From Piscinibacter sp. XHJ-5 (GTDB lineage: Bacteria > Pseudomonadota > Gammaproteobacteria > Burkholderiales > Burkholderiaceae_C): DNA of 64,000 nt. Made by a program: the position numbers and the translations under genes. Shown here piece by piece: positions 8,808 through 31,759 of this stretch (position 1 is the stretch's first letter; every line of letters begins with the position of its first letter). The notes below the pieces were generated by a model. It searched no databases. It saw only the letters and a program-made list of their open reading frames with translations, and was not told the origin of the DNA. The DNA is taken from positions 2,852,001 to 2,916,000 of the forward strand of contig NZ_CP123228.1 in the NCBI RefSeq assembly GCF_029855045.1. The letters are read 5' to 3'.

Positions 8808-8825
8808 ATGAGGTGCGGTCCTCAT
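8808..8825. promoter_or_regulatory. LacI-type operator 1 (regulator promoter)
   Basis: ATGAGGTGCGGTCCTCAT, a near-perfect palindrome around a central CG, 18 bases before the LacI-type regulator start. Binding here would give autoregulation. It is one of five copies of the pattern in the window, all in non-coding sequence upstream of regulator, transport or catabolic genes. Confidence 0.72.
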
Positions 8826-8935
8826 GCCTCGACCGGGTGGCGACCGACGGCGACGCTGCCCTCGTGTTGCGAGGACGACGACGGTTGTCCTTCCCTCGGG
8901 CAAACACGACCCTCGGGGAAACCCCCAGCGCCACG

Positions 8936-8953
8936 ATGAGGTGCGAACCTCAC
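8936..8953. promoter_or_regulatory. LacI-type operator 2 (before CUT2 system B)
   Basis: ATGAGGTGCGAACCTCAC, the second member of the palindrome family, 128 bases from the first (centre to centre). Paired sites at such a distance are compatible with looping by a tetrameric or paired repressor; that is inference from spacing alone. Confidence 0.7.
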
Positions 8954-9150
8954 AATGCCTCGGCGCGATGAGGTGGTGGCCACGCTGCCGTTTCATCGAC
9001 GTCCGGCCGCGGCGAGAAAGAAGGCAAGTCGCCGAGCCGACATGGGTCGAAGCCCCGCGACAGCCATTGAGGGTCGCGGCAGAGCAGTTCAGCAGTCGAC
9101 GGCAACCATAGGCAAGGCGCACTGGCGCGACGACGAACAGGAGCATCGAT

Positions 9151-10143
9151 ATGAACAAGGCAATGCTGAAGATGGCGGGTGTGGCACTGGCTGCGCTTCT
9201 CGCTGCAAGCCCGGTCTGGGCACAGAAGAAGACGCTGGCGGTGGTGGTCAAGGGCCTGGACAACCCGTTCTTCACGGTCCTCGGCGACGGCTGTGCGCGC
9301 TGGAACAAGGAGAACCCCCAGTCCGAGTACACCTGCCTCTACACCGGCCCGGCCTCGAGCGCCGACGAGGCGGGCGAGGTGCAGATCGTCGAGGATCTCA
9401 TCAACAAGGGCGTGGCAGGCATCGCGATCTCGCCGTCCAATGCGCCGGCCATGGCCAACATGCTGAAGGCCAAGCAGCCGAAGATGCCGATCATGACGAT
9501 CGACGCGGACCTGGCTGCGGCCGACCGCTCGCTGCGCAAGACCTACCTCGGCACCAACAACTACGACATGGGCGTGCTGATGGCCAAGCACCTGAAGGAG
9601 CTCAAGCCGAAGGGCGGCAGCGTATGCCTGCAGCTGGGCAACGTCGCGGCCGACAACATCAACGCGCGTGCCGCGGGCTTTCGCGACACCATCGGCGGCA
9701 AGAAGGGCGTCGACAAGCTGAAGGGCGATGGCGGCTGGACCGAAGTGGCGGGCTGCCCGCTGTTCACGAACGACCAGATCGACCTGGCCAACCAGCAGAT
9801 GGCCGACGTGTTCACCAAGAACCCGAAGCTCGATGCGTTCATCCTGGTGGGCGGCTGGGCGCAGTTCGGGCCGCAGGCCTACGCCCAGGTCACCGACCAG
9901 GTGATGGCCAAGCTCAAGTCCAAGGACCTGATCATCATCGCCGGCGACACGCTGCCGCCGCAGCTCGATGCACTGAAGGCGGGACGCAGCCATGCCCAGA
10001 TCGGCCAGCGGCCGTTCGAGATGGGACACCGCGCACCGGCCGTGCTGATCGACCTCATCAGCGGCAAGAACGTGCCGGATCCGCTGTACACGGGACTGGA
10101 CGAGTGCACGCCGGCCAACCTGGGCAAGTGCCCGGCGAAGTGA
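9151..10143 (+). CDS. CUT2 sugar ABC transporter substrate-binding protein (system B)
   Basis: A 330-residue periplasmic binding protein of the ribose/galactose type (Peripla_BP_4). A Sec signal peptide is visible (positive N-terminus, hydrophobic core, cleavage likely after Ala24 in PVWA). The mature start KKTLAVVVKGLDNPFF is the usual first strand and ligand-contact loop. Cysteines in the mature part (GDGCARW, YTCLY, SVCLQL, GCPLF, ECTP, KCPAK) are more numerous than usual and could form disulfides. It leads the SBP-ATPase-permease operon 9151-12042, whose single-domain ATPase recalls the fructose Frc system. Substrate not determined. Confidence 0.92.
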   Translation: MNKAMLKMAGVALAALLAASPVWAQKKTLAVVVKGLDNPFFTVLGDGCARWNKENPQSEYTCLYTGPASSADEAGEVQIVEDLINKGVAGIAISPSNAPAMANMLKAKQPKMPIMTIDADLAAADRSLRKTYLGTNNYDMGVLMAKHLKELKPKGGSVCLQLGNVAADNINARAAGFRDTIGGKKGVDKLKGDGGWTEVAGCPLFTNDQIDLANQQMADVFTKNPKLDAFILVGGWAQFGPQAYAQVTDQVMAKLKSKDLIIIAGDTLPPQLDALKAGRSHAQIGQRPFEMGHRAPAVLIDLISGKNVPDPLYTGLDECTPANLGKCPAK

Positions 10144-10180
10144 TACCGACCGGCCTGATCTGATACGGGCGGGGAGGCTC

Positions 10181-10209
10181 GCCCAGGGCGCCGCTCGCCG
10201 CCCCTGGGC
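10181..10209 (+). other. Intra-operon hairpin after the binding-protein gene (system B)
   Basis: GCCCAGGG at 10181-10188 pairs with CCCTGGGC at 10202-10209, with further partial pairing inside. It lies between the binding-protein stop and the ATPase start and lacks a T-tract, so it is more likely an mRNA-stabilising or processing hairpin than a terminator. Similar structures follow two other binding-protein genes here. Confidence 0.55.
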
Positions 10210-10236
10210 GCAATTGAACGAGGAATCCGGCGCAGC

Positions 10237-10977: not shown

Positions 10978-10998
10978 CCGACACTCTTCGTGCGTGCC

Positions 10999-12042: not shown

Positions 12043-12173
12043 CCCCCGCCGCACGCACGCGACACGTGCAGCGGGATCTCGTGGATACCGGCCATCCCCG
12101 TCCATTGGAGCGACTGGCGGCTCGCCTCGAGCGGCGGGGCGTGGGGTAGGGAAGGCCCGGCCGGTGTCTTTCA

Positions 12174-12204
12174 AAGGCCCGCCCTGTGGCGGGCCTTCTT
12201 TTTT
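12174..12204 (+). terminator. Rho-independent terminator after CUT2 system B
   Basis: AAGGCCCGCC (12174-12183), loop CTGT, then GGCGGGCCTT (12188-12197) give a perfect ten-base-pair stem followed by CTTTTTT. This is a textbook intrinsic terminator on the plus strand. Confidence 0.93.
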
Positions 12205-12308
12205 CTGCCGGCATTCGAGGGTAACCAGGCGAGTAGCGGACCTCAGGGGAGGGCATCGGCTTTCCCATGGGTTCTCGCGGATGGCTGGGGAAAACCATCA
12301 GATCCGGA

Positions 12309-12326
12309 ATGAGGTACGTACCTCAT
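12309..12326. promoter_or_regulatory. LacI-type operator 3 (xylB promoter), perfect palindrome
   Basis: ATGAGGTACGTACCTCAT is a perfect 18-base palindrome 50 bases before the xylB start. It is the best-conserved member of the five-site family and places xylose catabolism under the same control as the neighbouring importers. Confidence 0.78.
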
Positions 12327-12376
12327 CATCTCGTCCGGGCCGCCATCACACCCGGCGGCCGCATCGCGCACACCAC

Positions 12377-13909
12377 ATGTCTTCCACGACCCCTCCGAGT
12401 GCCGGGCATTCCGCGCACACCGGTCCGACGCTGGGCATCGACGTCGGCACCTCCGCGGTGAAGGCGTTGCTGCTCGACGGCGATCGTGTGCTGGGCACCG
12501 CGCACGCGCCCCTGGCGGTGAGCCGCCCGCAGCCCGGCTGGTCCGAGCAGGCACCCGAGGACTGGTGGACCGCGACATGCGCCTGCCTCGATGCGCTGGC
12601 GGCCGAGCGCCCGGCGACCTTGAGCGCGGTGCGCGCCATCGGGCTCGCGGGCCACATGCACGGCGCCACGCTGCTCGATGAAGAGGGCGAGGTGCTGCGT
12701 CCCTGCATCCTCTGGGACGACGGTCGCAGCGCGCCACAATGCGCCGAGCTCGAGGCCGCAGTGCCAGCCTTGCGCGCGATCACCGGCAACGCCGCGATGC
12801 CGGGCTTCACCGCGCCGAAGCTGCTGTGGGTCCGTCGGCACGAGCCGGAGGTGTTTGCGCGCACGCGCCTCGTGCTGCTGCCCAAGGCATGGCTGCGCTG
12901 GCGGCTGTGCGGCGAGGCGATCGAGGACATGTCCGATGCGTCGGGCACCCTGTGGCTCGACGTGGCGGCGCGGCGCTGGTCCGCCGACATGCTGGCGGCG
13001 TGCGGCCTCGACGAGTCGCAGATGCCGCGCCTGGTCGAAGGCACGATGCGGGCCGGAGAGTTGCGCGCGCCCTGGGTCAAGCGCTGGGGCTTCGCGCAAC
13101 CGCCCATCATCGCCGGCGGCGCCGGCGACAACGCGGCCGGCGCGGTGGCGCTGGGGGCCGTGAATCCGGGTGATGCCTTCCTCTCGCTCGGCACGTCAGG
13201 CGTGTTGTGGGTGACCACCGCGCACCATGCCCCGGCGCCCGACCGCGGCGTGCATGCCTTCTGCCACTCGGTGCCCCGGACCTGGCACCAGATGGGCGTG
13301 CTGCTCAGCGCCGCGGCCTCGCTCAGCTGGTGGGCCGCGTGCACGGGCAGCGACGAGCACCGACTCCTCGCCGAGCTGCCCGCGCAGGTGGACGCGCCTG
13401 CGCCGTGCCGGTTCCTCCCGTATCTGAGCGGCGAGCGCACGCCGCACAACGACGCCACGGTCCGCGGCGCCTTCCTGAATCTCGCCGCCGGGACGTCCCG
13501 CCAGCAGATGACGCAGGCCGTGCTCGAGGGCGTTGCCCATGCCTTTCGCGATGCGCGCGACGCGCTCGCCGGCGCCGGCACGCACATCGAGATCGCGGAC
13601 GTGATCGGCGGCGGTGCACGCTCGAACCTGTGGTGCGATCTGCTGGCGAGCATGCTCAACATCCCGCTGCGCCGCATCGACGACGCATCGCACGGCCCCG
13701 CGCTGGGCGCCGCGCGGCTCGCGCAGGCGGCGCTCACCGGCCGCAGCGACTTTCCGCGGCAGCCCGCCAGCCGCGTCTTCGAGCCCCGGCCTGCGCTCGT
13801 TCAGCGCTATGACGAATCGAGCGCGGGGTGGTCACAGCTCTATGCCCTCGCGCGCCGGGTTCCCGGCTCTTCTTCACCTGCCTTCACAGCTTCGGACTCC
13901 GTGCCATGA
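12377..13909 (+). CDS. xylB: Xylulokinase
   Basis: A 510-residue FGGY-family kinase that phosphorylates D-xylulose to xylulose 5-phosphate. Family marks include the N-terminal phosphate-binding [15 protein letters not shown] (about residues 20-34), the XylB-typical [10 protein letters not shown] and [17 protein letters not shown], and the C-terminal GGGARS ATP-binding motif. The ATG at 12377 follows the LacI-type operator by 50 bases. The stop overlaps the xylA start (ATGA), so the two are translationally coupled. The order xylB-xylA is inverted relative to E. coli. Confidence 0.95.
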
Positions 13910-15267
13910 CTGCGACATCCTCTGCTCTGCACACCGGACCCCACGGTCCCTATTTCTCTTTCTCGAAGGCGCTGCGCTTCCGCGGCGACGGCTTCACGTC
14001 GAGCGATGACGAGCCCTTCGCCTACCGCTGGTACGACAAGGACCGGATGGTGCTCGGCCGCCGCATGGAGGACCAGCTGCGCTTCGCGGCCTGCTACTGG
14101 CACAGCTTCGTCGGCACCGGCACCGACCCGTTCGGCGACGCCACGTTCGCGCGGCCATGGCACGCCGGCGGAAGCCCGATGGAGCAGGCGCTGCACAAGG
14201 CCGACGTCGCCTTCGAGCTCTTTCAGGTGCTGGACGTGCCGTTCTTCACCTTCCACGACCGCGACATCGCCCCCGAGGGCCGCACGCTGGCCGAGTCGAA
14301 CGACAACGTGCGCCGCGTCGCCGATGTCTTCGAGCGCAAGATGGCCGACACCGGCGTCAAGCTGCTGTGGGGCACGGCCAACCTGTTCTCGCATCCGCGC
14401 TACATGGCGGGCGCCGCCACGAATCCCGATCCCGAAGTCTTCGCGTACGCCGCAGCCCAGGTGCGCAACGTGCTCGAGGTGACGCATCGACTGGGCGGCG
14501 CGAACTACGTGCTCTGGGGCGGCCGCGAAGGCTACGAGACCCTGCTCAACACCGACCTGAAGCGGGAGCTCGCGCAGATGGGGCGCTTCCTGTCGATGGT
14601 CGTGGACCACAAGCATCGGATCGGCTTCAAGGGCCAGATCCTCATCGAGCCCAAGCCGGCGGAGCCGACCAAGCACCAGTACGACTTCGACGTTGCCGCG
14701 GTGCACGGCTTCCTGCGCACCTACGGCCTCGAGCACGAGGTGAAGGTGAACATCGAGCAGAACCACGCGCTGCTCGCAGGTCACACCTACGAGCACGAGA
14801 TCGTGCTGGCCCAGGCGCTCGGCATCTTCGGTTCGCTGGACATGAACCGCGGCGACGAGATGCTCGGCTGGGACACCGACCAGTTCCCGCACAACGTGCA
14901 GCAGGTCGCGCTCGCGCTGTACCACGTGCTGCGTGGAGGCGGCATCGGCGCCGGCGGGCTGAACTTCGACGCCAAGCTGCGTCGCCAGTCGATCGAACCC
15001 GACGATCTCGTGTGGGCACACGCCGGCGCGATGGACGTCTGCGCGCGCGCGCTGCTGATCGCCGAGAAGATGGTCATCGACGGCGCGCTGCAGCGGCACA
15101 TCGACGCGCGCTACGCCGGCTGGGACGGCGAGCGCGGGAGAGCGATCCTCGACGGCGGCGTGTCCCTCGAGGAGCTGGCGCGCGACGTCGAGCGCCGCGG
15201 CATCGAGCCGCAGCCGCGTTCGTCGCGGCAGGAGCGGCTGGAGCATCTGGTCGCGAGCTACCTCTGA
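13906..15267 (+). CDS. xylA: Xylose isomerase
   Basis: A 453-residue enzyme converting D-xylose to D-xylulose. Characteristic blocks are [12 protein letters not shown] (catalytic His and Asp), [31 protein letters not shown] (metal-binding glutamate), [17 protein letters not shown] and the metal aspartates in [18 protein letters not shown]. Length and motif order match the proteobacterial (class II) XylA. It acts as a metal-dependent tetramer in the cytoplasm. It starts inside the xylB stop codon. Together with XylB it feeds xylose to the pentose phosphate pathway. Confidence 0.97.
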
Positions 15268-16381: not shown

Positions 16382-17551
16382 ATGGCGATCGAAGCATCGC
16401 GCGACGAATCGGGTGCCGGCCGGCGGATCCGCCTGGGCATGGTCGGCGGGGGCGAGGGCGCGTTCATCGGCGCGGTGCACCGCATCGCTGCGCGGCTGGA
16501 CGACCAGTACGAGCTCGTCGCCGGCGCGCTGTCGTCGGAGCCCGGCAAGGCACTGCGCTCGGCCCAGGCCATCGGCCTGGCGCGCGCCTATCCCGACTTC
16601 CACACGATGGCGCGCGAGGAGGCCGCGCGTCCCGACGGCATCGAGGTGGTGGCCATCGTGACGCCGAACGACCAGCACGCGCCCGCGGCCGAGGCGTTCC
16701 TGCGCGCGGGCATCCATGTCATCTGCGACAAACCCGTGACGACGACGCTCGCCGACGCGCAGCGCCTGGATGCTCTCGTGCAGGAGACGGGCAGGCTGTT
16801 CGCGGTGACGCACAACTACACCGGCTACCCCATGGTGCGGCATGCGCGCCAGCTGGTGCGCGACGGTGCGCTGGGCGATGTCCGCGTGGTCCAGGTCGAG
16901 TACGCGCAGGACTGGCTGACGGAGCGGCTGGAGGCCACCGGTCAGAAGCAGGCGGCCTGGCGCACCGACCCGAAGCGCTCCGGCGCCGGCGGCTGCATCG
17001 GCGACATCGGCACCCACGCGTTCAACCTGCTGAACTATGTGACCGGGCTGAAGACCGTCGAGCTCGCAGCCGAGCTCAGCACCTTCGTCGACGGCCGGGC
17101 GCTCGACGACAACGTGCAGGTGATGCTGCGACTGGCCAACGGCGCCCGCGGCGCCCTGTGGGCCAGCCAGGTGGCGCCCGGCAACGAGAACGCGCTGCGG
17201 CTGCGCGTGTACGGCAGCCGCGGCGGCCTCGAGTGGGCGCAGGAGCACCCGAACCAGCTGCGGTACTCGCCGTTCGGAGAGCCGGTGCGCACGGTGGCCC
17301 GCGGCACGTCGGCAACGTTGTCCGACGGGCAGCGGGTCACCCGCCTGCCGTCGGGCCATCCGGAGGGCTACCTCGAAGCCTTCGCAACGATCTATTCCGA
17401 GATCGCCCAGGCGATCCGCGCCGTGCGCTCCGGCCAGCCGGTCCCCGCGGGGGTCGACTTCCCGACGATGGCCGACGGCATCGACGGCCTGGCATTCATC
17501 GAGGCTGCGCTGCGCTCCTCGGCCGAAGGCGGCCGCTGGGTGCGGCTGTAG
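16382..17551 (+). CDS. Gfo/Idh/MocA-family NAD(P)-dependent oxidoreductase
   Basis: A 389-residue oxidoreductase. The N-terminal Rossmann domain (GMVGGGEGAFIGAVHRIA) is followed by ICDKPVTTTLADA, which carries the family EKP-like lysine, and the C-terminal substrate domain has GGCIGDIGTHAFNLLNYV with the conserved D..TH pair. Such enzymes oxidise or reduce sugars and cyclitols. The gene lies 12 bases after the isomerase-like gene and before the CUT2 ATPase, so its substrate is probably the sugar taken up by system C. Specific activity is not predictable from sequence. Confidence 0.92.
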   Translation: MAIEASRDESGAGRRIRLGMVGGGEGAFIGAVHRIAARLDDQYELVAGALSSEPGKALRSAQAIGLARAYPDFHTMAREEAARPDGIEVVAIVTPNDQHAPAAEAFLRAGIHVICDKPVTTTLADAQRLDALVQETGRLFAVTHNYTGYPMVRHARQLVRDGALGDVRVVQVEYAQDWLTERLEATGQKQAAWRTDPKRSGAGGCIGDIGTHAFNLLNYVTGLKTVELAAELSTFVDGRALDDNVQVMLRLANGARGALWASQVAPGNENALRLRVYGSRGGLEWAQEHPNQLRYSPFGEPVRTVARGTSATLSDGQRVTRLPSGHPEGYLEAFATIYSEIAQAIRAVRSGQPVPAGVDFPTMADGIDGLAFIEAALRSSAEGGRWVRL

Positions 17552-17570: not shown

Positions 17571-19055
17571 GTGGCACTCCAGGTCAGCTTCCGCGGGATC
17601 GTGAAGGCCTTCGGGCCCGTGCGCGTGCTGCATGGCGTGAGCTTCGACCTCGAGCCTGGCCGGGTCGTCGGCCTGCTGGGCGAGAACGGTGCGGGCAAAT
17701 CGACGCTGATGAAGATCCTCGCCGGCTACGAGACCATGAGCGGCGGCGACTTGCTGATCGACGGACAGCCTCGGCACTTCGCGGATTCGCGCGCGGCCGA
17801 GGCGGCCGGCATCGTGATGATCCACCAGGAGTTCAACCTGGCCGACGATCTGACCGTCGCGCAGAACATGTTCCTCGGCCAGGAGCGAGTGCGCGGCTGG
17901 CGCCTCGACAACGCCGCGATGCGCCGCGAGGCCGCGCAGGCGTTGCAGCAGATCGGGCTGGCCCTCGACCCCGACACCCGCACGCGCGACCTGATCGTCG
18001 CCGAGAAGCAGTTGGTGGAGATCGCGAAGGCGGTGTCGCGACGCGCGCGGCTGCTGGTGATGGACGAGCCGACCGCGACGCTGACGCCGACCGAGACCGA
18101 GCGCCTGTTCGCACTCATCCGGCGCCTGCGCGCGCAAGGCGTGGCCATCGTCTACATCTCGCACAAGCTCGACGAGGTCGAGCGCATCACCGACGAGGTC
18201 GTCGTGATGCGCGACGGCCGCTTCGTCGCGCGCGCGCCGACGTCGAGCGTCTCGCGCCATCAGATGGCCAACCTCATGGTCGGCCGCGAGCTGTCGGACA
18301 TGTTCCCGCCCAAGGCCCCGGCGCCGGACGGCCCGCCATTGCTGGAGGTGCAGGGGCTGTCGGTGCCCGGCTGGGCCCACGACGTGAGCTTCGACCTGCG
18401 CCCGGGCGAGATCCTCGGCTTCGCCGGGCTGGTCGGCGCAGGCCGCACCGAGCTGTTCGAGGGGCTGTTCGGGCTGCGGCCCAGCCGCGGCGGGGAGGTG
18501 CGGCTGGCCGGCGTGCCGGTGCGCTTTGCCACGCCGAAGCAGGCGGCGCAGCACGGCCTGACCTATCTCAGCGAGGACCGCAAGGGCCGCGGGCTGCACG
18601 TGCGGCTGCCGCTGCTGGACAACGTCACGCTGATGGACCTGGACCGTCACGCCCGCCCGTGGCTCGACCATGGCTCCGAGCAGCGCGCGCTGCAGCAGGC
18701 GGTGGCCGACTTCGGCATCCGCTGCAACGACCTCGATGCGCCGGCGTCGTCCCTGTCGGGCGGCAACCAGCAGAAGCTGGCGATCGCCAAGGTGCTGCAG
18801 CCGGGTCCGCGCGTCGTCGTGCTCGACGAGCCGACGCGCGGGGTCGACGTCGGTGCCAAGCGCGACATCTACTTTCTGATCCGCCGCCTCGCGGACGAAG
18901 GCCGCGGCATCGTCGTCGTCTCGTCCGAGCTGGTCGAGCTGATCGGCTTGTGCCACCGCGTGATCGTGATGCGGGCCGGGCGCGTGCAAGCGACGCTGAG
19001 CGCCGCGCAATTGACCGAAGAGGAGCTCATCGCGCATGTCACAGGCACCCATTGA
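17571..19055 (+). CDS. CUT2 sugar ABC transporter ATP-binding protein, two-domain (system C)
   Basis: A 494-residue protein with two fused ATPase domains. Domain 1 has Walker [10 protein letters not shown] and Walker [10 protein letters not shown]. Domain 2 has the usual CUT2 variant of Walker A (GLVGAGRTE), a canonical signature [12 protein letters not shown] and Walker [14 protein letters not shown]. The C-loop of domain 1 ([13 protein letters not shown]) is degenerate, as is typical of RbsA/XylG relatives. The start is a GTG at 17571. The 3' end overlaps the permease gene by 20 bases. Located in the xyl operon, it could serve xylose uptake, but this is not certain. Confidence 0.93.
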
Positions 19056-20082
19056 CACCGTCGTCGCCTCGCCGCTCGAGCCTGACGTCGATGCCGGCGC
19101 CGCGGTCAGGCGGCCGCTCGCTCGCCGGTTCGGGCGCCAGCTGGTCGGCGCGCGGCCGCTGATCGGCCTCGTGCTCGTCTGCATCGCCGGCCAGCTGCTC
19201 AATTCGGATTTCGGCGCCTGGGACAACGTGATGAACGTGCTCACCCGCACGGCGTTCATCGGCATCATCGCAGTGGGCATGTGTTTCGTGATCATCGGCG
19301 GCGGCATCGACCTGTCGGTCGGCTCGATGGCGGCGCTGATCGCCGGTGCGGAAATCCTGCTGATGAATGCGCTCGCGCCGCACCTCGGCTCGCCGGTGAC
19401 CGTGGTGCTGACCGGCCTGGCGGCCGCCGTCGCGATGGGCGTGCTCTTCGGCCTGGCGCACGGCCTGCTGATCACCAAGGGCAGCATCGAGCCCTTCATC
19501 GTCACGCTCGGCACCCTGGGCATCTTCCGCGCGGTGCTGACCTGGCTGGCCGACGGCGGGGCGATCACCCTCGATGGCACGCTCGCCGACACCTACGCAC
19601 CGGTCTACTACGGCAGCCTGCTCGGCTTGCCGGTGCCGATCTATGTCTTCGCGTTCGTCGCCTTCGCCGGAGGCTTCCTGCTCAACGGCACGCGCTACGG
19701 TCGCTACGTGCAGGCGATCGGCAGCAACGAGCAGGTCGCGCGGTACGCGGCGGTGTCGGTCGACCGCGTGAAGATCGTCTCGTACGTTCTGCTCGGCGCC
19801 TGCGTCGGCGTGGCCACCGTGCTTTACGTGCCGCGGCTCGGGTCGGCATCGCCGACCACGGGCCTCCTGTGGGAGCTGGAGGCGATCGCCGCGGTGATCG
19901 TCGGCGGCACCGTGCTCAAGGGCGGCAGCGGCAGCGTGTTCGGCACCGTCGTGGGCGCCGTGCTGCTGTCCGTCATCAGCAACATCCTGAACCTGACCAG
20001 CATCATCAGCGTGTACCTGAACGCGGCGGTGCAGGGGGTGGTGATCATCATCGTGGCCTTCCTCCAGCGAGGGCGGCGCTGA
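19036..20082 (+). CDS. CUT2 sugar ABC transporter permease (system C)
   Basis: A 348-residue permease of the RbsC/XylH class with about ten hydrophobic spans and the signature [17 protein letters not shown]. The ATG lies inside the 3' end of the ATPase gene (20-base overlap), so expression of the two is coupled. The cytoplasmic N-terminal tail (about 35 residues) precedes the first span. It is followed by the binding-protein gene, an order (ATPase, permease, SBP) that is the reverse of the usual SBP-first arrangement. Confidence 0.92.
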
Positions 20083-20153
20083 TGCGGCCGGGGAGCGCGG
20101 CGCGATTCGCGGCCCCGAAGAAGTTCCTGTCCAACTGAAGATCCGGAGACAAC

Positions 20154-22342: not shown

Positions 22343-22360
22343 CTGAGGTGCGCACCTCAT
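22343..22360. promoter_or_regulatory. LacI-type operator 4 (between SDR and system D)
   Basis: CTGAGGTGCGCACCTCAT contains a perfect 16-base palindrome with central CG. It lies 91 bases upstream of the divergent SDR start and 100 bases before the binding-protein start, so it can serve both directions. It shares its left flank (ATTCCCTGAGGT) with operator 5 at 31742. Confidence 0.75.
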
Positions 22361-22362: not shown

Positions 22363-22405
22363 GTCGGGCCAAATGGCCCTCCGGTGTGAAACTGGTCTGA
22401 CCAGT
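22363..22405. promoter_or_regulatory. GntR/FadR-type operators before CUT2 system D
   Basis: ACTGGTCTGACCAGT (22391-22405) is a perfect 15-base palindrome around a central T and closely resembles FadR-family sites. A second related word, ATTTGGCCCGAC, is read on the minus strand at 22363-22374. They stand directly beside the LacI-type operator, so this promoter seems to integrate two regulators. Confidence 0.7.
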
Positions 22406-22459: not shown

Positions 22460-23431
22460 ATGAAACTCGCTTGGAAAGCGATTCTGAGCCGCAGGACAAC
22501 GATCGTCGCCCTGGCCGTCGGGTTGTGCGCTGCGGGTGTCTCGACGGCTCAGAGCAAGAAGAACCTGGTCTTCGTGGTGAACGGCGCGTCCGACTTCTGG
22601 AAGATTGCCGAGGCCGGCGTGAAGAAGGCGCAGGGCGAGCTGCCGAAGTACGGCCTGCAGTTCAAGTACCCGGAACAGGCCTCCGCCGCAGCGCAGCAGC
22701 GGCTGATGGAGGACCTGGTGGCCGCGGGCGCCGCCGGCATCATGGTGAGCGCGGTCGACCCGAAGAACCAGGTCGACGGCCTCAACAAGCTCGCCGGACA
22801 GACGCTGATCTTCACCACCGACTCCGACGCGGCGCAGTCCAAGCGCGTGGCCTACATCGGCTCGTCGAACGTCGACCTCGGCAAGGACGCGGGCAAGCTG
22901 ATGCTCAAGGCGCTGCCGCAAGGCGGCAAGTGCATCGGCTTCGTCGGCCTGCTCGGCGCCGACAACGCGCGCGAGCGCATCCAGGGCGTGAAGGAAACGA
23001 TCAAGGGCTCCAAGGTCGAGATGATCGACGTGCGCGGCGACGAGATCGACCAGGGCCGCGCCAAGCGCAATGTCGAGGACGCGCTGGCGGCGAACCCCGA
23101 CATCGCCTGCCTCGTGGGCTTCTATTCGTACAACACGCCGCGCATCTACGAGGTGCTGAAGGAGACCGGCAAGCTCGGCAAGATCAAGGTGATCGGCTTC
23201 GACGAAGACCCCATCACCCTGGGTGGCGTGAAGGAAGGCAGCATCGTCGGCACGGTCGTGCAGCAGCCGTTCGAGTGGGGCTACCAGGGCATGAAGCTGA
23301 TGGCCGCCTATCTCGAGGGCAACAAGTCCGGCATCCCGAAGGACGGGATCATCATCGTGCCGGGCAAAGTGATCGACAAGTCGAACGTCGACGCCTTCAC
23401 CGCGAACCTGAAGCAGATGATGGGCAAGTAG
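22460..23431 (+). CDS. CUT2 sugar ABC transporter substrate-binding protein (system D)
   Basis: A 323-residue periplasmic binding protein. The signal peptide has a basic N-region (MKLAWKAILSRR) and likely cleavage after Ala30 (STA). The mature part follows the Peripla_BP_4 pattern (LVFVVNGASDFWKIAEAG, DNARERIQGVKE, IGFDEDPITLGGVKEG, VQQPFEWGYQ). GAACGAGGAG precedes the start. It is the first gene of operon 22460-26125 and is followed by a very stable hairpin. The ligand is not known. Confidence 0.92.
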   Translation: MKLAWKAILSRRTTIVALAVGLCAAGVSTAQSKKNLVFVVNGASDFWKIAEAGVKKAQGELPKYGLQFKYPEQASAAAQQRLMEDLVAAGAAGIMVSAVDPKNQVDGLNKLAGQTLIFTTDSDAAQSKRVAYIGSSNVDLGKDAGKLMLKALPQGGKCIGFVGLLGADNARERIQGVKETIKGSKVEMIDVRGDEIDQGRAKRNVEDALAANPDIACLVGFYSYNTPRIYEVLKETGKLGKIKVIGFDEDPITLGGVKEGSIVGTVVQQPFEWGYQGMKLMAAYLEGNKSGIPKDGIIIVPGKVIDKSNVDAFTANLKQMMGK

Positions 23432-23441
23432 GCCGGCAGGG

Positions 23442-23487
23442 TGCGGAACCGCGCGCGCCGGCGCTGCCGGCGCGCCGCGGTTCCGCA
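23442..23487 (+). other. Long intra-operon hairpin after the binding-protein gene (system D)
   Basis: TGCGGAACCGCG (23442-23453) pairs with CGCGGTTCCGCA (23476-23487), and inside it CGCGCCGGC (23454-23462) pairs with GCCGGCGCG (23466-23474). The result is a 21-base-pair stem with one bulged base and a three-base loop. It has no T-tract. Position and strength suggest 3'-end protection of the binding-protein mRNA, giving excess SBP over membrane parts, as known for malE-malF. Confidence 0.75.
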
Positions 23488-23517
23488 GGCCTGCACGGCA
23501 CGGCGATCGACATCGAG

Positions 23518-25029
<1,512 letters not shown>

Positions 25030-25057
25030 AGCCGGGACCGACATCCGAGGAGCCAAC

Positions 25058-26125
25058 GTGATCTTCAAGAAGGACATCGGACTGTTCGTGCTGATCCTCG
25101 TGGTCGGCACGGTCGTCGCCATCATCAATCCGCGCTTCCTGCTCGCCGGGAACATCTCGAACACGGCGAACCAGGTCGGTCTGTTCGGCATCCTCGCGGT
25201 CGCCCAGGCCTTCGTGATCCTCACCGGCGGCATCGAGTTGTCGGTCGGTGCGATCGTCGCGCTGCTGGGCGTGCTGTTCATCGACCTGATCGTCAACATG
25301 AACGTGCACTGGGCGGTCGCGGTGGTGATCGTGATCGGCGCGGGCATGCTGATGGGTCTGGTCCATGGCGTGCTGGTCGCCAAGGTCGGCATGCAGCCTT
25401 TCGTGGTGACACTGTGCGCGCTGCTGATCTACCGCGGCACGGCGCGCTACTACACCGAGGACGCGACGGTCGGCTTCGGGTTCGGCGCCAGCTTTCCCAC
25501 GCTGGAGTGGCTGACGGCCGGCCGGTCGGAGGTCTTCGCGCCGCTCGCGCGGCTGTTCGGGCACGAGGGACCGACGATCGCGGTGCCGCACACGCTGATC
25601 GCGCTGGCGGTGGTCACGCTGCTCGCCGGCGTGGTGCTGCACCGGTCGGTGCTCGGCCGCTACCTGTTCGCGATCGGCAAGAACGAGGAGGCGGCCCGCT
25701 ATTCGGGGATCGCCACCGGCCGCATCACCATCGCTGCCTATGTGATCTGCTGTGGGCTCTCGGCGCTCGCCGCGATCGTGCTGGCGATGTACACGCGTTC
25801 GATCGCCCCGGCCGTGCACGGCAACTTCTACGAGCTCTACGCGATCGCGGCAGCGGTCCTCGGCGGCTTCTCGCTGCGCGGCGGGGAAGGGTCCATCCTC
25901 GGCGTCGTGCTCGGCACCATCCTGCTGCAGGTGCTGCAGAACCTGGTCAACCTGCTGGGCATTCCGAGTTCGCTGAACTTCGCGGTGATGGGCTCGGTGA
26001 TCCTGATCGGGGTGCTGGCCGATCAGCAGTTCACGCGCTACCGCAACCGGTCCGTGGCCCAGGCAGCGCACGCCCGCCCCGCGCCTGCACGCGGCGGGAC
26101 GGCCGACAGCAGCGCGAGCGTGTGA
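25058..26125 (+). CDS. CUT2 sugar ABC transporter permease (system D)
   Basis: A 355-residue RbsC-type permease. The protein starts with GTG at 25058, preceded by GAGGAG. Hydrophobic spans begin at residue 6, and the family motif is present as GGIELSVGAIVALLG, with Glu replacing the usual Asp. The C-terminal tail (about 30 residues, rich in Ala, Arg and Pro) is cytoplasmic. It is the last gene of system D; the next gene is the convergent GntR-type regulator 75 bases away. Confidence 0.92.
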   Translation: MIFKKDIGLFVLILVVGTVVAIINPRFLLAGNISNTANQVGLFGILAVAQAFVILTGGIELSVGAIVALLGVLFIDLIVNMNVHWAVAVVIVIGAGMLMGLVHGVLVAKVGMQPFVVTLCALLIYRGTARYYTEDATVGFGFGASFPTLEWLTAGRSEVFAPLARLFGHEGPTIAVPHTLIALAVVTLLAGVVLHRSVLGRYLFAIGKNEEAARYSGIATGRITIAAYVICCGLSALAAIVLAMYTRSIAPAVHGNFYELYAIAAAVLGGFSLRGGEGSILGVVLGTILLQVLQNLVNLLGIPSSLNFAVMGSVILIGVLADQQFTRYRNRSVAQAAHARPAPARGGTADSSASV

Positions 26126-26910: not shown

Positions 26911-26924
26911 ATTGGCCTGACCAT
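26911..26924. promoter_or_regulatory. GntR-type operator at the regulator-1 promoter
   Basis: ATTGGCCTGACCAT, 18 bases upstream of the GntR regulator 1 start. It is identical over TTGGCCTGACC to sites at 31699-31713 and 38096-38109. The position fits autoregulation. Confidence 0.68.
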
Positions 26925-27017
26925 GATAGCGACAGCCGCGGGACGGGTGCTTCGCCGGACGGATCGCCGCGGACCTTGCCGGCCGCGCCCGCGGCAGGCA
27001 GAGGAAGGGGTTCGGCG

Positions 27018-27980
27018 TCACGAGCGCAGGCGTCCCAGGCCGAGCGCGGTCGCGATGATCACACCCTTGGCGATGAGCTGAAGGTCTATCGGAACGTCGA
27101 GGATGTTCATCGCGTTGTTGAGTGCGCCGAGGAAGAGCACCCCGAGCACCGTGCGCGCCACCGATCCGCGCCCGCCGCTGAGCTGGGTGCCGCCCAGCAC
27201 CACCGCGGCGATGACGTCGAGCTCGGTGCCGAACTCGCCGTAGGTCGCCGAGCCGGTGTGCACCTGGGACGCCAGGATCACGCCGGCAAGGGCGGCGCAC
27301 AAGCCACTCAGGCCGTACAGCGACATCGTCGTCTGCCGCGTGCGATGGCCGCTGAGCCACGCGACGCGTTCGTTGTCGCCGATGGCGGTGACCCTCAGGC
27401 CGAGCGCGCTGCGGCGCTGCACGAAGACCAGCGTGGCCGCCACGGCGCCGAACAGCCACACCGAGAATGGCAGGCCGGCGATGCTGCCGGTGCCGATGAA
27501 GCTGAAGGCCGGCTGCCCGCGCACCGCGTGCAAGTCCGGCCCACCCAGGAGCAGCGCCGAGCCGCGCACGATGCTCAGCATGGCCAGCGTGACGATGATC
27601 GGCGGCAGTCCGCCCAGCGCAATGAGCCCGCCGCTGCACAGGCCGATCGCCAGGCCCAGGCCCAGCGACAGCGCGAGCGCGATCGGCAGCCCGAGCCCCG
27701 CGTCGAGCGACAGCACGGCGACCAGTCCCGACAGGGCCAGCACGGGCCCGATCGACAGGTCGATGCCGCCGGTCATGATCACGAAGGTCATCGCCGACGC
27801 CATGATCCCGACGATCGCCACCTGACGCAGGATGCCGACGAGGTTGTCGGCGCCGAGAAATGCCGGCTGGATCCATGCGAACAGCGCGACTGCCGCCGCC
27901 GCGGCGAGCGGCAAGGCCGACGCGGCCAGCCGCCGGCGCCAGACCGGATCACGCATGCCGGGCATGGCGATGGCGCTCAT
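27018..27980 (-). CDS. CUT2 sugar ABC transporter permease (system E, second permease)
   Basis: A 320-residue permease of the RbsC type with the motif GGIDLSIGPVLALSGLV. Its ATG overlaps the ATPase stop (ATGA at 27977-27980), so it is translationally coupled. It is the last gene of a four-gene unit (SBP, permease, ATPase, permease). Having two different permeases suggests a heterodimeric channel, unlike the single-permease systems B, C, D and F. Confidence 0.92.
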   Translation of the reverse strand: MSAIAMPGMRDPVWRRRLAASALPLAAAAAVALFAWIQPAFLGADNLVGILRQVAIVGIMASAMTFVIMTGGIDLSIGPVLALSGLVAVLSLDAGLGLPIALALSLGLGLAIGLCSGGLIALGGLPPIIVTLAMLSIVRGSALLLGGPDLHAVRGQPAFSFIGTGSIAGLPFSVWLFGAVAATLVFVQRRSALGLRVTAIGDNERVAWLSGHRTRQTTMSLYGLSGLCAALAGVILASQVHTGSATYGEFGTELDVIAAVVLGGTQLSGGRGSVARTVLGVLFLGALNNAMNILDVPIDLQLIAKGVIIATALGLGRLRS

Positions 27981-29491
27981 GCCGGCGCCGCTCCGAAATC
28001 GGCCACCAGTTCGGCAATGCTCGTGTGTCGTGCATCGCGGGTTCGCACGATGCGGCCCTCGGCCATCACGACGATGCGATCGGCGATCGCCATCACTTCC
28101 TCGAGGTCCGAGGAGACGACGAGGATCGCGGTGCCGCGCGTGCGCTCGGCGCGCAGCGTGGCGTAGATCTCCGCCTTCGCCCCCACGTCCACACCGACCG
28201 TGGGCTCGTCGAGGATGAGCACCCGCGGCTGCAGCTCCAGCCACTTTCCGAGCAGCACCTTCTGCTGGTTGCCGCCGGACAGCGATCGCACCAGGCGGCT
28301 CGGCGCCGGCGGCTGCACGTTCAATGCGGCGATCCACCGCTGGGCCGTCTCGCGCACGCGCGCCGCGACGAGCAGGCCGCTGCGGCTGCAGCGGTTGACC
28401 GTCGCGAGCACCAGGTTTTCGGCCACCGACAGGTTCAGCAGCAGGCCCTCGCGATGGCGATCCTCGGGGACGAATCCGATCCCGTGCGCGATGGCCTCGC
28501 GCGGGGAGTGGAGGACGACCGGGCGGCCGTCGAGCTCGAGCGTGCCGGCATCCAGACGATCGGCGCCGAAGATCGCGCGCATCAGCTCGGTCCGCTTCGA
28601 GCCGACCAGACCGGTGACGCATACGATCTCTCCGCCGTGCACGTCGAGGTCGATGTCGCGGAACAGGGCCCGGCGGGACATGCCGGCGCAGCGCAGCCGC
28701 GGCGGGCCTGTCCGCTGGGCCGGCGCGGGCCAGGCGCTGCCGCTGCGGCTGTCGCGTGCGAGAACGTCGCCCACCATGTGGCGCACCAGGCCCGCCCGGT
28801 CCATCGTCCCGATCGGCGCATCGGCGACCACGCGGCCGTCACGCATCACCGTGACCGTGTCGCACACGGAGAACACCTCGTCGAGCATGTGGCTCGTGTA
28901 GACGATGGCGACTCCCCGCGAGCGCAGGTGGCGAATCGTCGCGTGCAGTCGCGCGACGTCGGCCACCGACAGCCAGCCGGTCGGCTCGTCCATCAACAGC
29001 ACGCGTGCCTCCAGGGCGAGCGCCTTGAGGATCTCGACTTCCTTCTGCTTCACGGTCGGCAGTTCCGCGACCGGCACGTCGAGGTCGAGATCGATGTGGT
29101 GGCGCGCCAGCAGCGCGCGCGCATCGTCGCGCAGCCGCCGGCGGTCGAGGAGCCCGAGTCGGCGGGTGGGGACGCGGCCGAGGTACAGGTTGTCGAGCAC
29201 CGACATCTGCGGCACGAGGTTCGAGTGCTGATAGATGCACGCGACGCCGCGCCGCAGCATCTCCGTCGGCCTGCCCAGGGGCGCGGCTTCGCCGCAGATC
29301 TCCACCTGCCCGCCGCTGGGCGCGATGGCGCCGGCCAGGATCTTCAGCAGCGTCGACTTGCCCGCGCCGTTCGAGCCGACCAGCGCGCGCACCTCGCCCG
29401 CGGCGACCGTGAAGTCGGTCGGCTGCAGCACCGTCTGCGTGCCGTAGGTCTTGGTGACGGCACGGGCGCGGATCGGCGATGCGGCATCCAT
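27977..29491 (-). CDS. CUT2 sugar ABC transporter ATP-binding protein, two-domain (system E)
   Basis: A 504-residue double ATPase. Domain 1: Walker A GSNGAGKST, Q-loop YQHSN, degenerate C-loop (PTVKQKEVEILKAL), Walker B LLMDEPTGW. Domain 2: degenerate Walker A (GLVGSKRTE), intact signature [13 protein letters not shown] and Walker B LILDEPTVGVDVG. The frame is open further upstream, but similarity begins at ATG 29491. It lies between the two permease genes of the operon. The Lys-Arg in the second Walker A is a small deviation from the common GAGRTE. Confidence 0.92.
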   Translation of the reverse strand: MDAASPIRARAVTKTYGTQTVLQPTDFTVAAGEVRALVGSNGAGKSTLLKILAGAIAPSGGQVEICGEAAPLGRPTEMLRRGVACIYQHSNLVPQMSVLDNLYLGRVPTRRLGLLDRRRLRDDARALLARHHIDLDLDVPVAELPTVKQKEVEILKALALEARVLLMDEPTGWLSVADVARLHATIRHLRSRGVAIVYTSHMLDEVFSVCDTVTVMRDGRVVADAPIGTMDRAGLVRHMVGDVLARDSRSGSAWPAPAQRTGPPRLRCAGMSRRALFRDIDLDVHGGEIVCVTGLVGSKRTELMRAIFGADRLDAGTLELDGRPVVLHSPREAIAHGIGFVPEDRHREGLLLNLSVAENLVLATVNRCSRSGLLVAARVRETAQRWIAALNVQPPAPSRLVRSLSGGNQQKVLLGKWLELQPRVLILDEPTVGVDVGAKAEIYATLRAERTRGTAILVVSSDLEEVMAIADRIVVMAEGRIVRTRDARHTSIAELVADFGAAPA

Positions 29492-29544
29492 GTCAGTCCC
29501 GCAGCAGGGAGCGGCGAACGACCTGAGCGAGCCCGCGTTCCATG

Positions 29545-30567
29545 CTAGGTGGCGTGGTCCGCGGCATGCCGTCGCACGAGCCAGCGGGCGTGCGCCACCG
29601 CCGCGAGCAGGACCGCGCCGGTGAGGATCTGCTGCACGAACTGCGAGATGCCGTACAGCGTGAGCCCCAGCAGCACCACACCGAGCAGGAAGGTGCCGAG
29701 CACGGGTCCCCACAGCGAGCCGCTGCCGCCGCGCACGCTGACCCCTCCGATCACCGCGCCGGCGATCGCCGTCAGTTCGAGGCCGTTGCCCAGCGACTCC
29801 GTCGCGGTGGTCAGGCGAGCCAGCAGCAGCAGCGCCGCGATGCCCGCGCACAACCCGCTCAGGGTGTAGGCCAGCACGACGCCACGCGCGACCGGGATGC
29901 CCGCCAGCCGCGCCGCCTCGGGGTTGCCGCCGATCGCGAGCAGCTCATGACCGAAGCGCGACCGCGACAGCAGGGTCTGGAACAGCACGAGCAGCACCAG
30001 CATCACGACGAACGACATCGGAATCGCCGGCAGCGAGAGCGCGCCCGGCAGGTCCAGCGCGCTGCCGAGGTCGAAGAAGGTCTCCAGCCCGATGATCCAG
30101 GGGTCGGTGATCGGCGTGGTCGACAGCTCGGGCATCAGCTGGCGACCCGAGATCGCGAACACGAGGCCGCGGTAGGCCGCGAGCGTGGCCAGCGTCGCGA
30201 TGAAGGGCTGCAGGCCCAGGCCGGCGACGAGCAGGCCGTTGACCGCGCCGGCCAGCGTGGCGACCGTGACCGCCAGGAGCAGCACCGCCCAGCCGGGCAG
30301 CTGCAGCAGCAGCGACGCATCCAGCGCCACCATGGCCGCCAGCGCGACGATCGCCCCGACCGAAAGGTCGATTCCGCGCACGATGATCGCAAACGCCTGG
30401 CCCATCGCGACGATGGCGATGAACGCGTAGCCGGCCATCAGGTTCTCGAGGTTGCTCGCCGATGCGAAACGCGGTGCGACCGCGCAGAAGAACGCGAACG
30501 TCACTGCAAAGAAGATCGGCAACGCGCTGGACCCGGCAGGGGCGAACCTCCTCGGTCGATGGGCCAT
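29545..30567 (-). CDS. CUT2 sugar ABC transporter permease (system E, first permease)
   Basis: A 340-residue RbsC-type permease with the motif VRGIDLSVGAIVALAAMV and about ten hydrophobic stretches. The start lies 13 bases after the SBP stop, and the stop 53 bases before the ATPase start. It is paralogous to the other system E permease but clearly diverged, consistent with two non-identical subunits. Confidence 0.92.
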   Translation of the reverse strand: MAHRPRRFAPAGSSALPIFFAVTFAFFCAVAPRFASASNLENLMAGYAFIAIVAMGQAFAIIVRGIDLSVGAIVALAAMVALDASLLLQLPGWAVLLLAVTVATLAGAVNGLLVAGLGLQPFIATLATLAAYRGLVFAISGRQLMPELSTTPITDPWIIGLETFFDLGSALDLPGALSLPAIPMSFVVMLVLLVLFQTLLSRSRFGHELLAIGGNPEAARLAGIPVARGVVLAYTLSGLCAGIAALLLLARLTTATESLGNGLELTAIAGAVIGGVSVRGGSGSLWGPVLGTFLLGVVLLGLTLYGISQFVQQILTGAVLLAAVAHARWLVRRHAADHAT

Positions 30568-30580
30568 GGCGTCGGGCGTC

Positions 30581-31624
30581 TCACCAGCGCTGGCTGGGCT
30601 GGATCTGCCGCACGTTGTCGCGCGTGGCGATCAGGTAGGGCATGAGCAGCCGCGCCTTCGCCTTCACGGCGGTCGCGGGCACGTTGCCGGCGGCCAGCAT
30701 CGTCGCCGCCGCAGCGGCGAAGCGGCCCTGCTGGTAGACGTCGGTGTACTGCGTGCCGGTGAGTTCCCCGTTTTCGATCGACTCGAGCGCGTCCTTCTCG
30801 CCGTCGTTGCCGAAGACGACCAGCTTGCCGAGCAGGCCCTTCTCCTTCGCGACGTCGATCGCGCCGAGGGCCATCGAGTCGTTGACGCCGTAGACGCCGC
30901 CCAGGCCCGGCCGCGCGGCGAGGATGGTCGCGAGCACGTCCTGAGCCTTCTTGCGTGACCAGTCGGCCACCTGGTCGGCGACGATCCGGATGGCGGGGTG
31001 GTGCTTCTTCATGCCCTCGACGAAGCCCTTCGTGCGCTGGTCACGGATGACGATGCCGGGCGGCGCGTTGAGGATCGCGACGTCGCCCTTGCCGCCCATC
31101 TTGTCGCCCATGACCCGCGCGATGTCCATCGCGCCGTAGTAGTGGCTCATCTCGACGTGCGCGGCATGCTGCGAGCTTGCATCGATGTTCAGCGTGATCA
31201 CCGAGATGCCGGCGCGCTTGGCCTTGTTGATCGACGGTGCGAGCGCAACGCTGTCGATCGGCTGCAGGAAGATGACCGAGGTCGCCTCGTTGATCAGGGT
31301 GTCCATCAGGCTCACCTGGACCTCGACCTTGTTCTGGCCGTCCAGCAGCCTGTACTCGAATCCCGGCTGATTCTTGAGCACCTCCTCGATGCCCTTGGAC
31401 CATGCGGCCGGCACGGTGTGCGGCTGCCATTGGATGAAGGCGGTCTTCAGCGTGGAGGGTGCAGCCGCCGCGGCGCCGCCCATGCCGAGCCGGCCCGATT
31501 GCGGATCGGCGCCGCCGAGCAGCGCGCCCGCGCCGGCGCCCAGCGTGGCGGAGGCCACCACGGCCTGTTTGATGAAGCCTCGGCGCGGCGTCTTGCGCGA
31601 TGGTCCTGACAGATGGTCGGTCAT
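30581..31624 (-). CDS. CUT2 sugar ABC transporter substrate-binding protein with Tat-type signal (system E)
   Basis: A 347-residue binding protein. The N-terminus has a twin-arginine motif (TPRRGFIKQ, arginines 14-15) followed by a modest hydrophobic segment, which fits Tat export; the other five SBPs here have Sec signals. The mature part has the Peripla_BP_4 layout (LKTAFIQWQPHTVPAAWSKG, IFLQPIDSVALAPSI, YGVNDSMALGAIDVA). CCAGGAGA precedes the ATG. It is the first gene of system E, under a promoter with both GntR- and LacI-type operators. Confidence 0.9.
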   Translation of the reverse strand: MTDHLSGPSRKTPRRGFIKQAVVASATLGAGAGALLGGADPQSGRLGMGGAAAAAPSTLKTAFIQWQPHTVPAAWSKGIEEVLKNQPGFEYRLLDGQNKVEVQVSLMDTLINEATSVIFLQPIDSVALAPSINKAKRAGISVITLNIDASSQHAAHVEMSHYYGAMDIARVMGDKMGGKGDVAILNAPPGIVIRDQRTKGFVEGMKKHHPAIRIVADQVADWSRKKAQDVLATILAARPGLGGVYGVNDSMALGAIDVAKEKGLLGKLVVFGNDGEKDALESIENGELTGTQYTDVYQQGRFAAAAATMLAAGNVPATAVKAKARLLMPYLIATRDNVRQIQPSQRW

Positions 31625-31698
31625 GGCGGTCTCCTGGGTTCGGGCCCGGCGGTGGCCTGCGTCAGGCGTTGCGGTCAGGCCAGTCATGTAACGTTGTG

Positions 31699-31713
31699 AT
31701 TTGGCCTGACCAG
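31699..31713. promoter_or_regulatory. GntR-type operator before CUT2 system E
   Basis: ATTTGGCCTGACCAG, 75 bases upstream of the system E start on the minus strand. It matches the site in front of GntR regulator 1 over TTGGCCTGACCA. Confidence 0.68.
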
Positions 31714-31741
31714 CGCGGTCGAAGGCAACTCGGTAAATTCC

Positions 31742-31759
31742 CTGAGGTACGTTCCTCAG
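31742..31759. promoter_or_regulatory. LacI-type operator 5 (before CUT2 system E)
   Basis: CTGAGGTACGTTCCTCAG is a near-perfect palindrome 117 bases before the system E start. With the GntR-type site at 31699-31713 it makes the second promoter carrying both operator types. Confidence 0.73.

What the first reader, a model, noticed from the sequence alone, without database searches (positions are those of the whole stretch)
8808..31759. Five-site LacI-type regulon TGAGGTNCGNNCCTCA across four sugar operons
Palindromes at 8808-8825, 8936-8953, 12309-12326 (perfect), 22343-22360 and 31742-31759 share one consensus with a central CG. All lie in non-coding DNA upstream of a LacI-type regulator, CUT2 systems B, D and E, and xylBA. 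The LacI gene next to the first two sites is the obvious binder. This would make a pentose-linked regulon with one regulator over three importers plus xylose catabolism.
Basis: partly seen in the sequence, partly recalled or inferred. Interest (0 to 1): 0.72.

Follow-up and report, generated by a model that had tools for sequence, protein, structure and literature searches.

The report
Xylose-operon repressor and its operators
One LacI-type repressor very probably switches a block of sugar-import and xylose/3-keto-sugar breakdown genes through five near-identical DNA sites, and the same repressor-site pairing recurs in related beta- and alphaproteobacteria; it is a well-supported regulon of an ordinary kind.

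Summary
The five palindromes are real. TGAGGTNCGNACCTCA with at most one mismatch occurs five times in the 6.65 Mb genome, all in this 23 kb. The binder is very probably the LacI protein at 7756-8790. In 200 family genomes, exact sites occur in 4 of 5 with a close orthologue and 0 of 195 without. Of 80 LacI relatives, 38 carry the site (up to 2 mismatches) just upstream, against a mean of 0.43 for scrambled palindromes. Operators before CUT2-B and between the epimerase and CUT2-D are kept in relatives. The 12310 operator heads a seven-gene run (xylB-xylA-hydratase-Gfo/Idh-CUT2 C), so system C belongs too. Operator 22344 also faces an epimerase gene. D and E, perhaps F, also carry candidate sites for a GntR regulator. 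The hydratase matches 2-hydroxy-3-keto-glucal hydratase, so the regulon joins xylose catabolism to part of a 3-keto-sugar pathway. An unexplained GGGGAAACC-like element accompanies 21 of 33 betaproteobacterial operators. Binding, effector and repression are inferred. The E operator has support only in this genome. Verdict: new member of a known kind.

The parts
7756..8790 (-). LacI-family regulator (344 aa; HTH 8-53, Peripla_BP_4 122-324), recognition helix VSLATVDRVL; proposed binder
   Evidence: Pfam LacI 55 bits and Peripla_BP_4 126 bits; orthologues 77-88% in G066, G199, G133, G091
8809..8824 (.). Operator O1, TGAGGTGCGGTCCTCA, 18 bp upstream of the lacI start: proposed autoregulation
   Evidence: the five orthologues have a site (0-2 mismatches) close upstream
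8937..8952 (.). Operator O2, TGAGGTGCGAACCTCA, 198 bp upstream of CUT2-B SBP
   Evidence: conserved in 7 aligned B promoters including this one
8915..8928 (+). GGGGAAACCCCCAG element 22 bp upstream of O2; function unknown
   Evidence: GGAAA invariant in 7 of 7 aligned B promoters
9151..10143 (+). CUT2 system B substrate-binding protein
   Evidence: Peripla_BP_4 162 bits
10237..10977 (+). CUT2 system B ATPase (246 aa, single ABC domain)
   Evidence: ABC_tran 114 bits
10990..12042 (+). CUT2 system B permease
   Evidence: BPD_transp_2 136 bits
12174..12197 (+). Terminator-like hairpin ending the B operon
   Evidence: 10 pairs plus T run (4 found in the scanned region, 3.1 expected in shuffles)
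12230..12245 (.). Weak operator-like site, 80 bp from O3
   Evidence: 2-3 mismatches
12287..12301 (+). GGGGAAAACCATCAG element 23 bp upstream of O3
12310..12325 (.). Operator O3, TGAGGTACGTACCTCA (perfect palindrome), 51 bp upstream of xylB
12377..13909 (+). xylB, xylulokinase
   Evidence: TIGR01312 512 bits, cut-off 380
13828..15267 (+). xylA, xylose isomerase (true start probably inside this ORF)
   Evidence: TIGR02630 645 bits, cut-off 533; only match in the genome
15305..16369 (+). TIM-barrel protein, 2-hydroxy-3-keto-glucal hydratase relative
   Evidence: PDB 8ro4 552.6 bits over residues 4-351 of 354
16382..17551 (+). Gfo/Idh/MocA oxidoreductase, candidate 3-keto-sugar reductase (inferred)
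   Evidence: Pfam; PDB 3v5n 498.6 bits, no function named
17571..21116 (+). CUT2 system C: ATPase 17571-19055, permease 19036-20082, SBP 20154-21116, contiguous with xylBA
   Evidence: same order behind lacI-xylBA in L077 and L085
21254..22252 (-). NAD-dependent epimerase/dehydratase-family gene, divergent from system D
   Evidence: Pfam Epimerase 79 bits; operator kept in L163, L164, L044
22344..22359 (.). Operator O4, TGAGGTGCGCACCTCA (perfect palindrome), between epimerase gene and CUT2-D
22393..22404 (+). TGGTCTGACCAG, candidate GntR operator in the D promoter
22460..26125 (+). CUT2 system D: SBP 22460-23431, ATPase c.23515-25029, permease 25058-26125
   Evidence: found as D_SBP, D_ATP, D_perm in L045, L163, L164
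26201..26893 (-). GntR/FCD regulator, candidate co-regulator of D, E and itself
   Evidence: Pfam GntR 78 bits and FCD 94 bits; candidate site 26913-26924 before its own start
27018..31624 (-). CUT2 system E: permease (27018-c.27990), ATPase (27977-c.29490), permease (29545-30567), SBP (30581-31624)
   Evidence: reading frames; SBP families; the permeases and ATPase read by eye from the translations
31702..31713 (+). TGGCCTGACCAG, candidate GntR operator in the E promoter
31743..31758 (.). Operator O5, TGAGGTACGTTCCTCA, 118 bp upstream of CUT2-E SBP
   Evidence: separated from lamB by a terminator-like hairpin at 31802-31782

Best explanation
The 7756-8790 gene encodes a LacI-family repressor whose dimer binds the 16-bp palindrome TGAGGTRCGYACCTCA at five operators. 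It represses itself (O1), the CUT2-B importer (O2), a seven-gene run xylB-xylA-hydratase-Gfo/Idh-CUT2 C (O3), the divergent epimerase and CUT2-D units (O4) and CUT2-E (O5). When an imported sugar, or an intermediate made from it, enters the Peripla_BP_4 pocket, the repressor leaves and import plus catabolism are switched on together. Shown by computation: the sites, their rarity, their tracking of this LacI clade and their position before these genes. Inferred: binding, repression rather than activation, and the effector (D-xylose or a related pentose, or a 3-keto sugar). D and E are probably also under the GntR regulator at 26201-26893.
For: Only 5 places in 6.65 Mb at up to 1 mismatch, all here. 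In 200 family genomes exact sites are in 4 of 5 with a close orthologue and 0 of 195 without (Fisher 8e-8); the fifth, G133, has a 1-mismatch site upstream of its lacI. Of 80 LacI relatives (the best 80 of 161, 43-88% identical), 19 have a site at up to 1 mismatch and 38 at up to 2 within 300 bp upstream plus the first 20 bp; 56 scrambled palindromes give mean 0 and 0.43, the highest being 13 for one scramble close to a natural variant. Of 15 named genomes tested out of those 80, 15 have at least one site at up to 1 mismatch; 3 of 15 have a reversed-control hit. Distant LacI paralogues: 0 of 20 loci at up to 2 mismatches. The B promoter operator is kept in 7 of 7 aligned promoters, and the epimerase/D operator in L163 and L164. 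In G091 a site 1.1 Mb from lacI stands before another Gfo/Idh gene and near CUT2 F. Helix variants go with operator variants: VGIATV with TGATGT in 4 of 4 half-sites, VSLATV mostly TGAGGT (21 of 34).
Against: No binding, expression or effector data. 36 of 80 relatives' loci have no site at up to 1 mismatch and 14 have none at up to 2, so sites in the more distant alphaproteobacterial members are often weak, elsewhere or absent. The lacI site in G066 and four other close relatives is only a 2-mismatch site. At up to 1 mismatch 18 of 195 genomes without a close orthologue also have a place, about the level of the reversed control (25 of 200 by my count of the listing). The E operator has no counterpart, since E_SBP was found in 0 of 80 loci at my threshold, and an independent operator directly before xylB was not seen in the relatives examined, where xylBA follows lacI, B or another Gfo/Idh gene. 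No sigma-70-like promoter was found in the scanned stretches. The 80 loci are related by descent, so they are not independent.
Confidence: 0.87

Rival explanations
1. The palindrome is the site of another regulator in the block (for example the GntR/FCD protein at 26201-26893), and its association with lacI is only through gene clustering.
For: The GntR gene lies between D and E, both of which carry the palindrome; in G091 and G205 a site lies 107-122 bp past the GntR gene's stop.
Against: The GntR gene was found in 0 of 80 LacI loci (within about 10 kb), yet 44 of 80 carry the site. The GntR protein has a better candidate of its own, TGGYCTGACCAG, before its own gene, D and E. Site variants follow the LacI recognition helix.
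Confidence: 0.06
2. LacI binds only its own promoter and the CUT2-B/xylBA region; the D and E palindromes are relics or belong to a paralogue.
For: E has no counterpart in relatives; D and E also have their own candidate GntR sites.
Against: The epimerase/D operator is kept in two other genomes while its flanks diverge; in G199 D lies directly behind xylBA; no paralogue above 34% identity was found in the own genome.
Confidence: 0.08
3. Chance palindromes in GC-rich DNA.
For: At up to 3 mismatches the motif is no more frequent than in shuffled sequence.
Against: At up to 1 mismatch 5 of 5 genomic places fall in 23 kb, with conservation across genomes.
Confidence: 0.005

Closest known systems
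   Same: Autoregulated LacI protein with a palindromic operator centred on CG, controlling ABC importers and catabolic genes; that survey reports autoregulation for 72% of its LacI regulators.
   Different: XylR does not occur in its main text and Comamonadaceae are not named there; whether this group is in its supplement or in RegPrecise could not be checked.
Known xylose regulators XylR (AraC type in E. coli, ROK type in Firmicutes; recalled, with a Firmicutes regulon paper seen only as a listing, PMC2873477)
   Same: Control of xylA and xylB.
   Different: The candidate here is a LacI-family protein by Pfam, and it appears to cover four CUT2 importers and 3-keto-sugar genes.
Non-hydrolytic 3-keto-glycoside pathway (oxidation, lyase, hydration, reduction; PMC13273386, passages seen)
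   Same: The operon holds a relative of 2-hydroxy-3-keto-glucal hydratase (8ro4, 552.6 bits) and a Gfo/Idh oxidoreductase.
   Different: No 3-dehydrogenase or lyase was recognised among the window genes I scanned; two PF13618 proteins (dehydrogenase partner family) lie elsewhere in the genome. A lyase was not searched for.

Membership tests
LacI-family transcription factor | N-terminal LacI helix-turn-helix domain | tested here: met
   PF00356 55 bits, cut-off 27, residues 8-53
LacI-family transcription factor | C-terminal periplasmic-binding-protein-like effector domain | tested here: met
   PF13407 125.7 bits, residues 122-324
LacI-family transcription factor | Palindromic operator with central CG near its own promoter | tested here: met
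   O1 18 bp upstream of lacI; conservation
LacI-family transcription factor | Operator binding relieved by a sugar effector | not testable with these tools
   needs protein
Any NCBIfam-named LacI equivalog | Score above the curated cut-off of a named equivalog | tested here: not met
   best is NF052440 at 65 bits, cut-off 400
Xylose catabolic genes (XylA, XylB) | Equivalog scores above cut-off | tested here: met
   TIGR02630 645 over 533; TIGR01312 512 over 380
D-xylose CUT2 importer (XylFGH) | SBP above the XylF equivalog cut-off | tested here: not met
   SBPs B, C, D and E score 32, 64, not listed and 59 bits against 390 (TIGR02634); importer substrates unknown
2-hydroxy-3-keto-glucal hydratase | Close full-length similarity to the solved enzyme 8ro4 | tested here: met
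   552.6 bits over residues 4-351 of 354; activity not tested
myo-inosose dehydratase IolE | TIGR04379 score above cut-off | tested here: not met
   60 bits against 290
GntR/FCD co-regulator with TGGYCTGACCAG operator | Operator specific to its targets genome-wide | tested here: inconclusive
   exact TTGGYCTGACCA: 3 places in the genome, 2 here (own gene, E); at up to 1 mismatch 28 places, control 20

The most novel reading that the evidence does not exclude
The regulon is a composite switch: the LacI repressor shares most of its betaproteobacterial promoters with a second, unidentified factor that reads the GGGGAAACC-like element about 20-30 bp from the operator, and its true signal is an intermediate common to xylose and 3-keto-glycoside breakdown rather than xylose itself, so that one repressor ties pentose import to a non-hydrolytic glycoside pathway across beta- and alphaproteobacteria.
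Probability: 0.25. Interest if true: 0.55.

Novelty: new member of a known kind. Interest (0 to 1): 0.36.

Why it matters
It gives a named operator and regulator for xylose catabolism in a group of Burkholderiales and a conserved operator code for a LacI clade that reaches into alphaproteobacteria. That makes substrates of several unassigned CUT2 importers testable. It also offers a regulatory link between xylose isomerase genes and 3-keto-sugar enzymes, and points to an unexplained second promoter element.

Tried and rejected
Rejected: chance origin. GntR as binder of this palindrome. IolE and levoglucosan dehydrogenase as names for the system-C enzymes: both score well below cut-off. Site 2471157 (TGAGGCTCGTGCCTCA) as a sixth operator: it has 2 mismatches to the symmetric form and none of my window proteins matched its 10 kb; its genes were not annotated further.

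Led nowhere: sigma-70 promoter scans (none found). Literature searches for the motif, the regulon and the GGGAAACCC element gave listings without a matching description. Searches looked for the hydratase pathway; only PMC13273386 and PMC9007349 were then read in passages. I did not find this regulon in print, but subscription papers, the Ravcheev supplement and RegPrecise were not searched.

Limits: the GGGAAA pattern was chosen after looking at the flanks, and alphaproteobacterial operators were left out of that count. In the window alone GGGRAAACCC is not enriched (5 hits, 3.4 expected), and the stricter pattern fits only the xylB copy exactly (control 2 of the 12-hit scale). In one search the first of two sites was counted for L073. 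Two of the 80 loci (L064, L069) are the same genomes as G066 and G199 of the family survey. Identity thresholds were my choice, and some loci are cut by contig ends.
Full report
OBSERVATION. The five palindromes are present at 8809, 8937, 12310, 22344 and 31743 (16-bp cores). Three match TGAGGTNCGNACCTCA exactly and two with one mismatch; two are perfect palindromes. A scan of the whole 6.65 Mb genome at up to one mismatch finds these five and nothing else. At exactly two mismatches there are five further scattered places, against three for the reversed control at up to two. The looser TGAGGNNCGNNCCTCA adds one place at 2471157. A composition model expects 0.92 places per genome and 0.003 per 23 kb at up to one mismatch.

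GENES. The neighbours were typed by Pfam and NCBIfam. LacI regulator 7756-8790 (-). CUT2 B 9151-12042 (+), closed by a terminator-like hairpin at 12174-12197. xylB 12377-13909 and xylA 13828-15267, both above equivalog cut-offs; no second xylA match in the genome. Behind xylA and in the same direction, with gaps of 37, 12, 19, -20 and 71 bp, come a TIM-barrel protein, a Gfo/Idh oxidoreductase and CUT2 C, so O3 very probably serves seven genes. An epimerase-family gene 21254-22252 (-) is divergent from CUT2 D 22460-26125 (+), with O4 between them. GntR/FCD regulator 26201-26893 (-). CUT2 E (-) ends its promoter side with O5, which is set apart from lamB by a hairpin at 31802-31782. The SBPs do not reach the XylF cut-off, so the importers' sugars stay unknown.

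WHO BINDS. In 200 genomes of the family, 21 have a LacI match at E up to 1e-40, of which five (this genome included) are 77-100% identical. Exact TGAGGTNCGNACCTCA occurs in four of these five and in none of the other 195 (Fisher 8e-8). At up to one mismatch it is five of five against 18 of 195; the reversed pattern rings in 25 of 200 by my count of the listing, so the 18 look like background. The fifth orthologue genome, G133, has a one-mismatch site upstream of its lacI. The recognition helix is identical in the five orthologues.

FOOTPRINTING. A scan of one genome per species gave 161 relatives, of which the best 80 were kept (43-88% identity). Within 300 bp upstream of lacI plus its first 20 bp, 19 of 80 have a site at up to one mismatch and 38 at up to two; 56 scrambled palindromes gave mean 0 and 0.43 (highest 13, for TGATGGNCGNCCATCA, which is close to the natural TGATGT variant). 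Anywhere in the loci the counts are 44 and 66 of 80. Twenty loci of distant LacI paralogues have none at up to two mismatches. In 15 of the 80 genomes searched whole, 15 have at least one site at up to one mismatch, mostly one or two and at most four; the reversed control rings in three. Half-site letters move with the recognition helix: VGIATV goes with TGATGT (4 of 4 half-sites), VSTATV with TG 5, GT 3, GG 1, CG 1, and VSLATV with GG 21, GT 9, TG 3, CT 1 (26 of 80 loci had a site of the form used; reversed control 0). These loci share ancestry, so this is support, not proof.

CONSERVED TARGETS. The operator before CUT2-B is aligned in seven promoters of seven. The epimerase/D operator is kept in L163 and L164, and G066 keeps it before the epimerase gene alone in the stretch fetched. 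In G199 D follows xylBA in one run, and in G202 xylBA follows B. In Piscinibacter and Schlegelella loci lacI is followed directly by xylB and xylA. In several relatives a second Gfo/Idh gene lies between the two operators divergent from lacI (L062, L045); in the window only 360 bp separate lacI and B, so O1 and O2 look like the two operators left after loss of that gene (inference; a 64% relative lies at 4160001 without a listed site). In Ruegeria two operators 30 bp apart stand before a CUT1 importer, a dihydroxyacetone-kinase-like gene, lacI, the hydratase relative and a Gfo/Idh gene. Over the 80 loci the neighbours are xylA 32, xylB 29, hydratase relative 41, Gfo 33, DAK 23. Thus xylose is not the only theme.

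PATHWAY. The 15305-16369 protein matches the solved 2-hydroxy-3-keto-glucal hydratase 8ro4 along its length (552.6 bits), and the Gfo/Idh neighbour matches 3v5n, which has no named function. A recent paper (PMC13273386, passages) describes the pathway: oxidation at C3, elimination, hydration, reduction to the sugar. Hydration and reduction could be done by this pair; a lyase was not searched, and two PF13618 proteins elsewhere could belong to the oxidation step. Whether the substrate is a xyloside, a glucoside or something else is open.

OTHER REGULATION. TGGYCTGACCAG-like palindromes stand before D (22393), the GntR gene (26913) and E (31702), and a one-mismatch form before F (38098). Genome-wide this motif is not specific at one mismatch (28 places, control 20), but two of its three exact places are here. 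A GGGGAAACC-like element lies 22-23 bp upstream of O2 and O3. GGGAAA, TTTCCC, GGGTTT or AAACCC occurs within 45 bp of 21 of 33 betaproteobacterial operators, against 0.77 at random places and 2.35 in shuffled flanks; the pattern was chosen after seeing the flanks, and some promoters are homologous. Its reader is unknown.

MECHANISM AND VERDICT. Best reading: a LacI repressor, autoregulated, covering B, xylBA-C, epimerase/D and E, induced by an imported sugar or its product. The operators and their owner are well supported; repression, effector and the E target are inferred. It is a new member of a known kind. I found no description in the papers searched; the LacI survey PMC4052901 was seen as abstract and seven passages.

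Noticed in passing
8915-8928 and 12287-12301; flanks in L062, L063, L066, L044, L076 and others: A GGGGAAACC-like element recurs within 45 bp of 21 of 33 betaproteobacterial operators; its binding factor is unknown.
   Followed up: partly
22393-22404, 26913-26924, 31702-31713, 38098-38109: TGGYCTGACCAG-like palindromes before CUT2 D, the GntR/FCD gene, CUT2 E and (one mismatch, other form) CUT2 F suggest a second overlapping regulon.
   Followed up: partly
8790-9151: Relatives have a second Gfo/Idh gene divergent from lacI between the two operators; the window lacks it there, and a 64% relative lies at genome position 4160001.
   Followed up: partly
L117 2053-2098 and other Ruegeria loci: Two operators 30 bp apart precede a CUT1 importer, DAK-like kinase, lacI, hydratase and Gfo/Idh genes, an unassigned alphaproteobacterial sugar pathway.
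   Followed up: partly
12230-12245: A weak operator-like site lies 80 bp (7.6 turns) from O3, and O1-O2 are 128 bp (12.2 turns) apart; looping is possible but untested.
   Followed up: no
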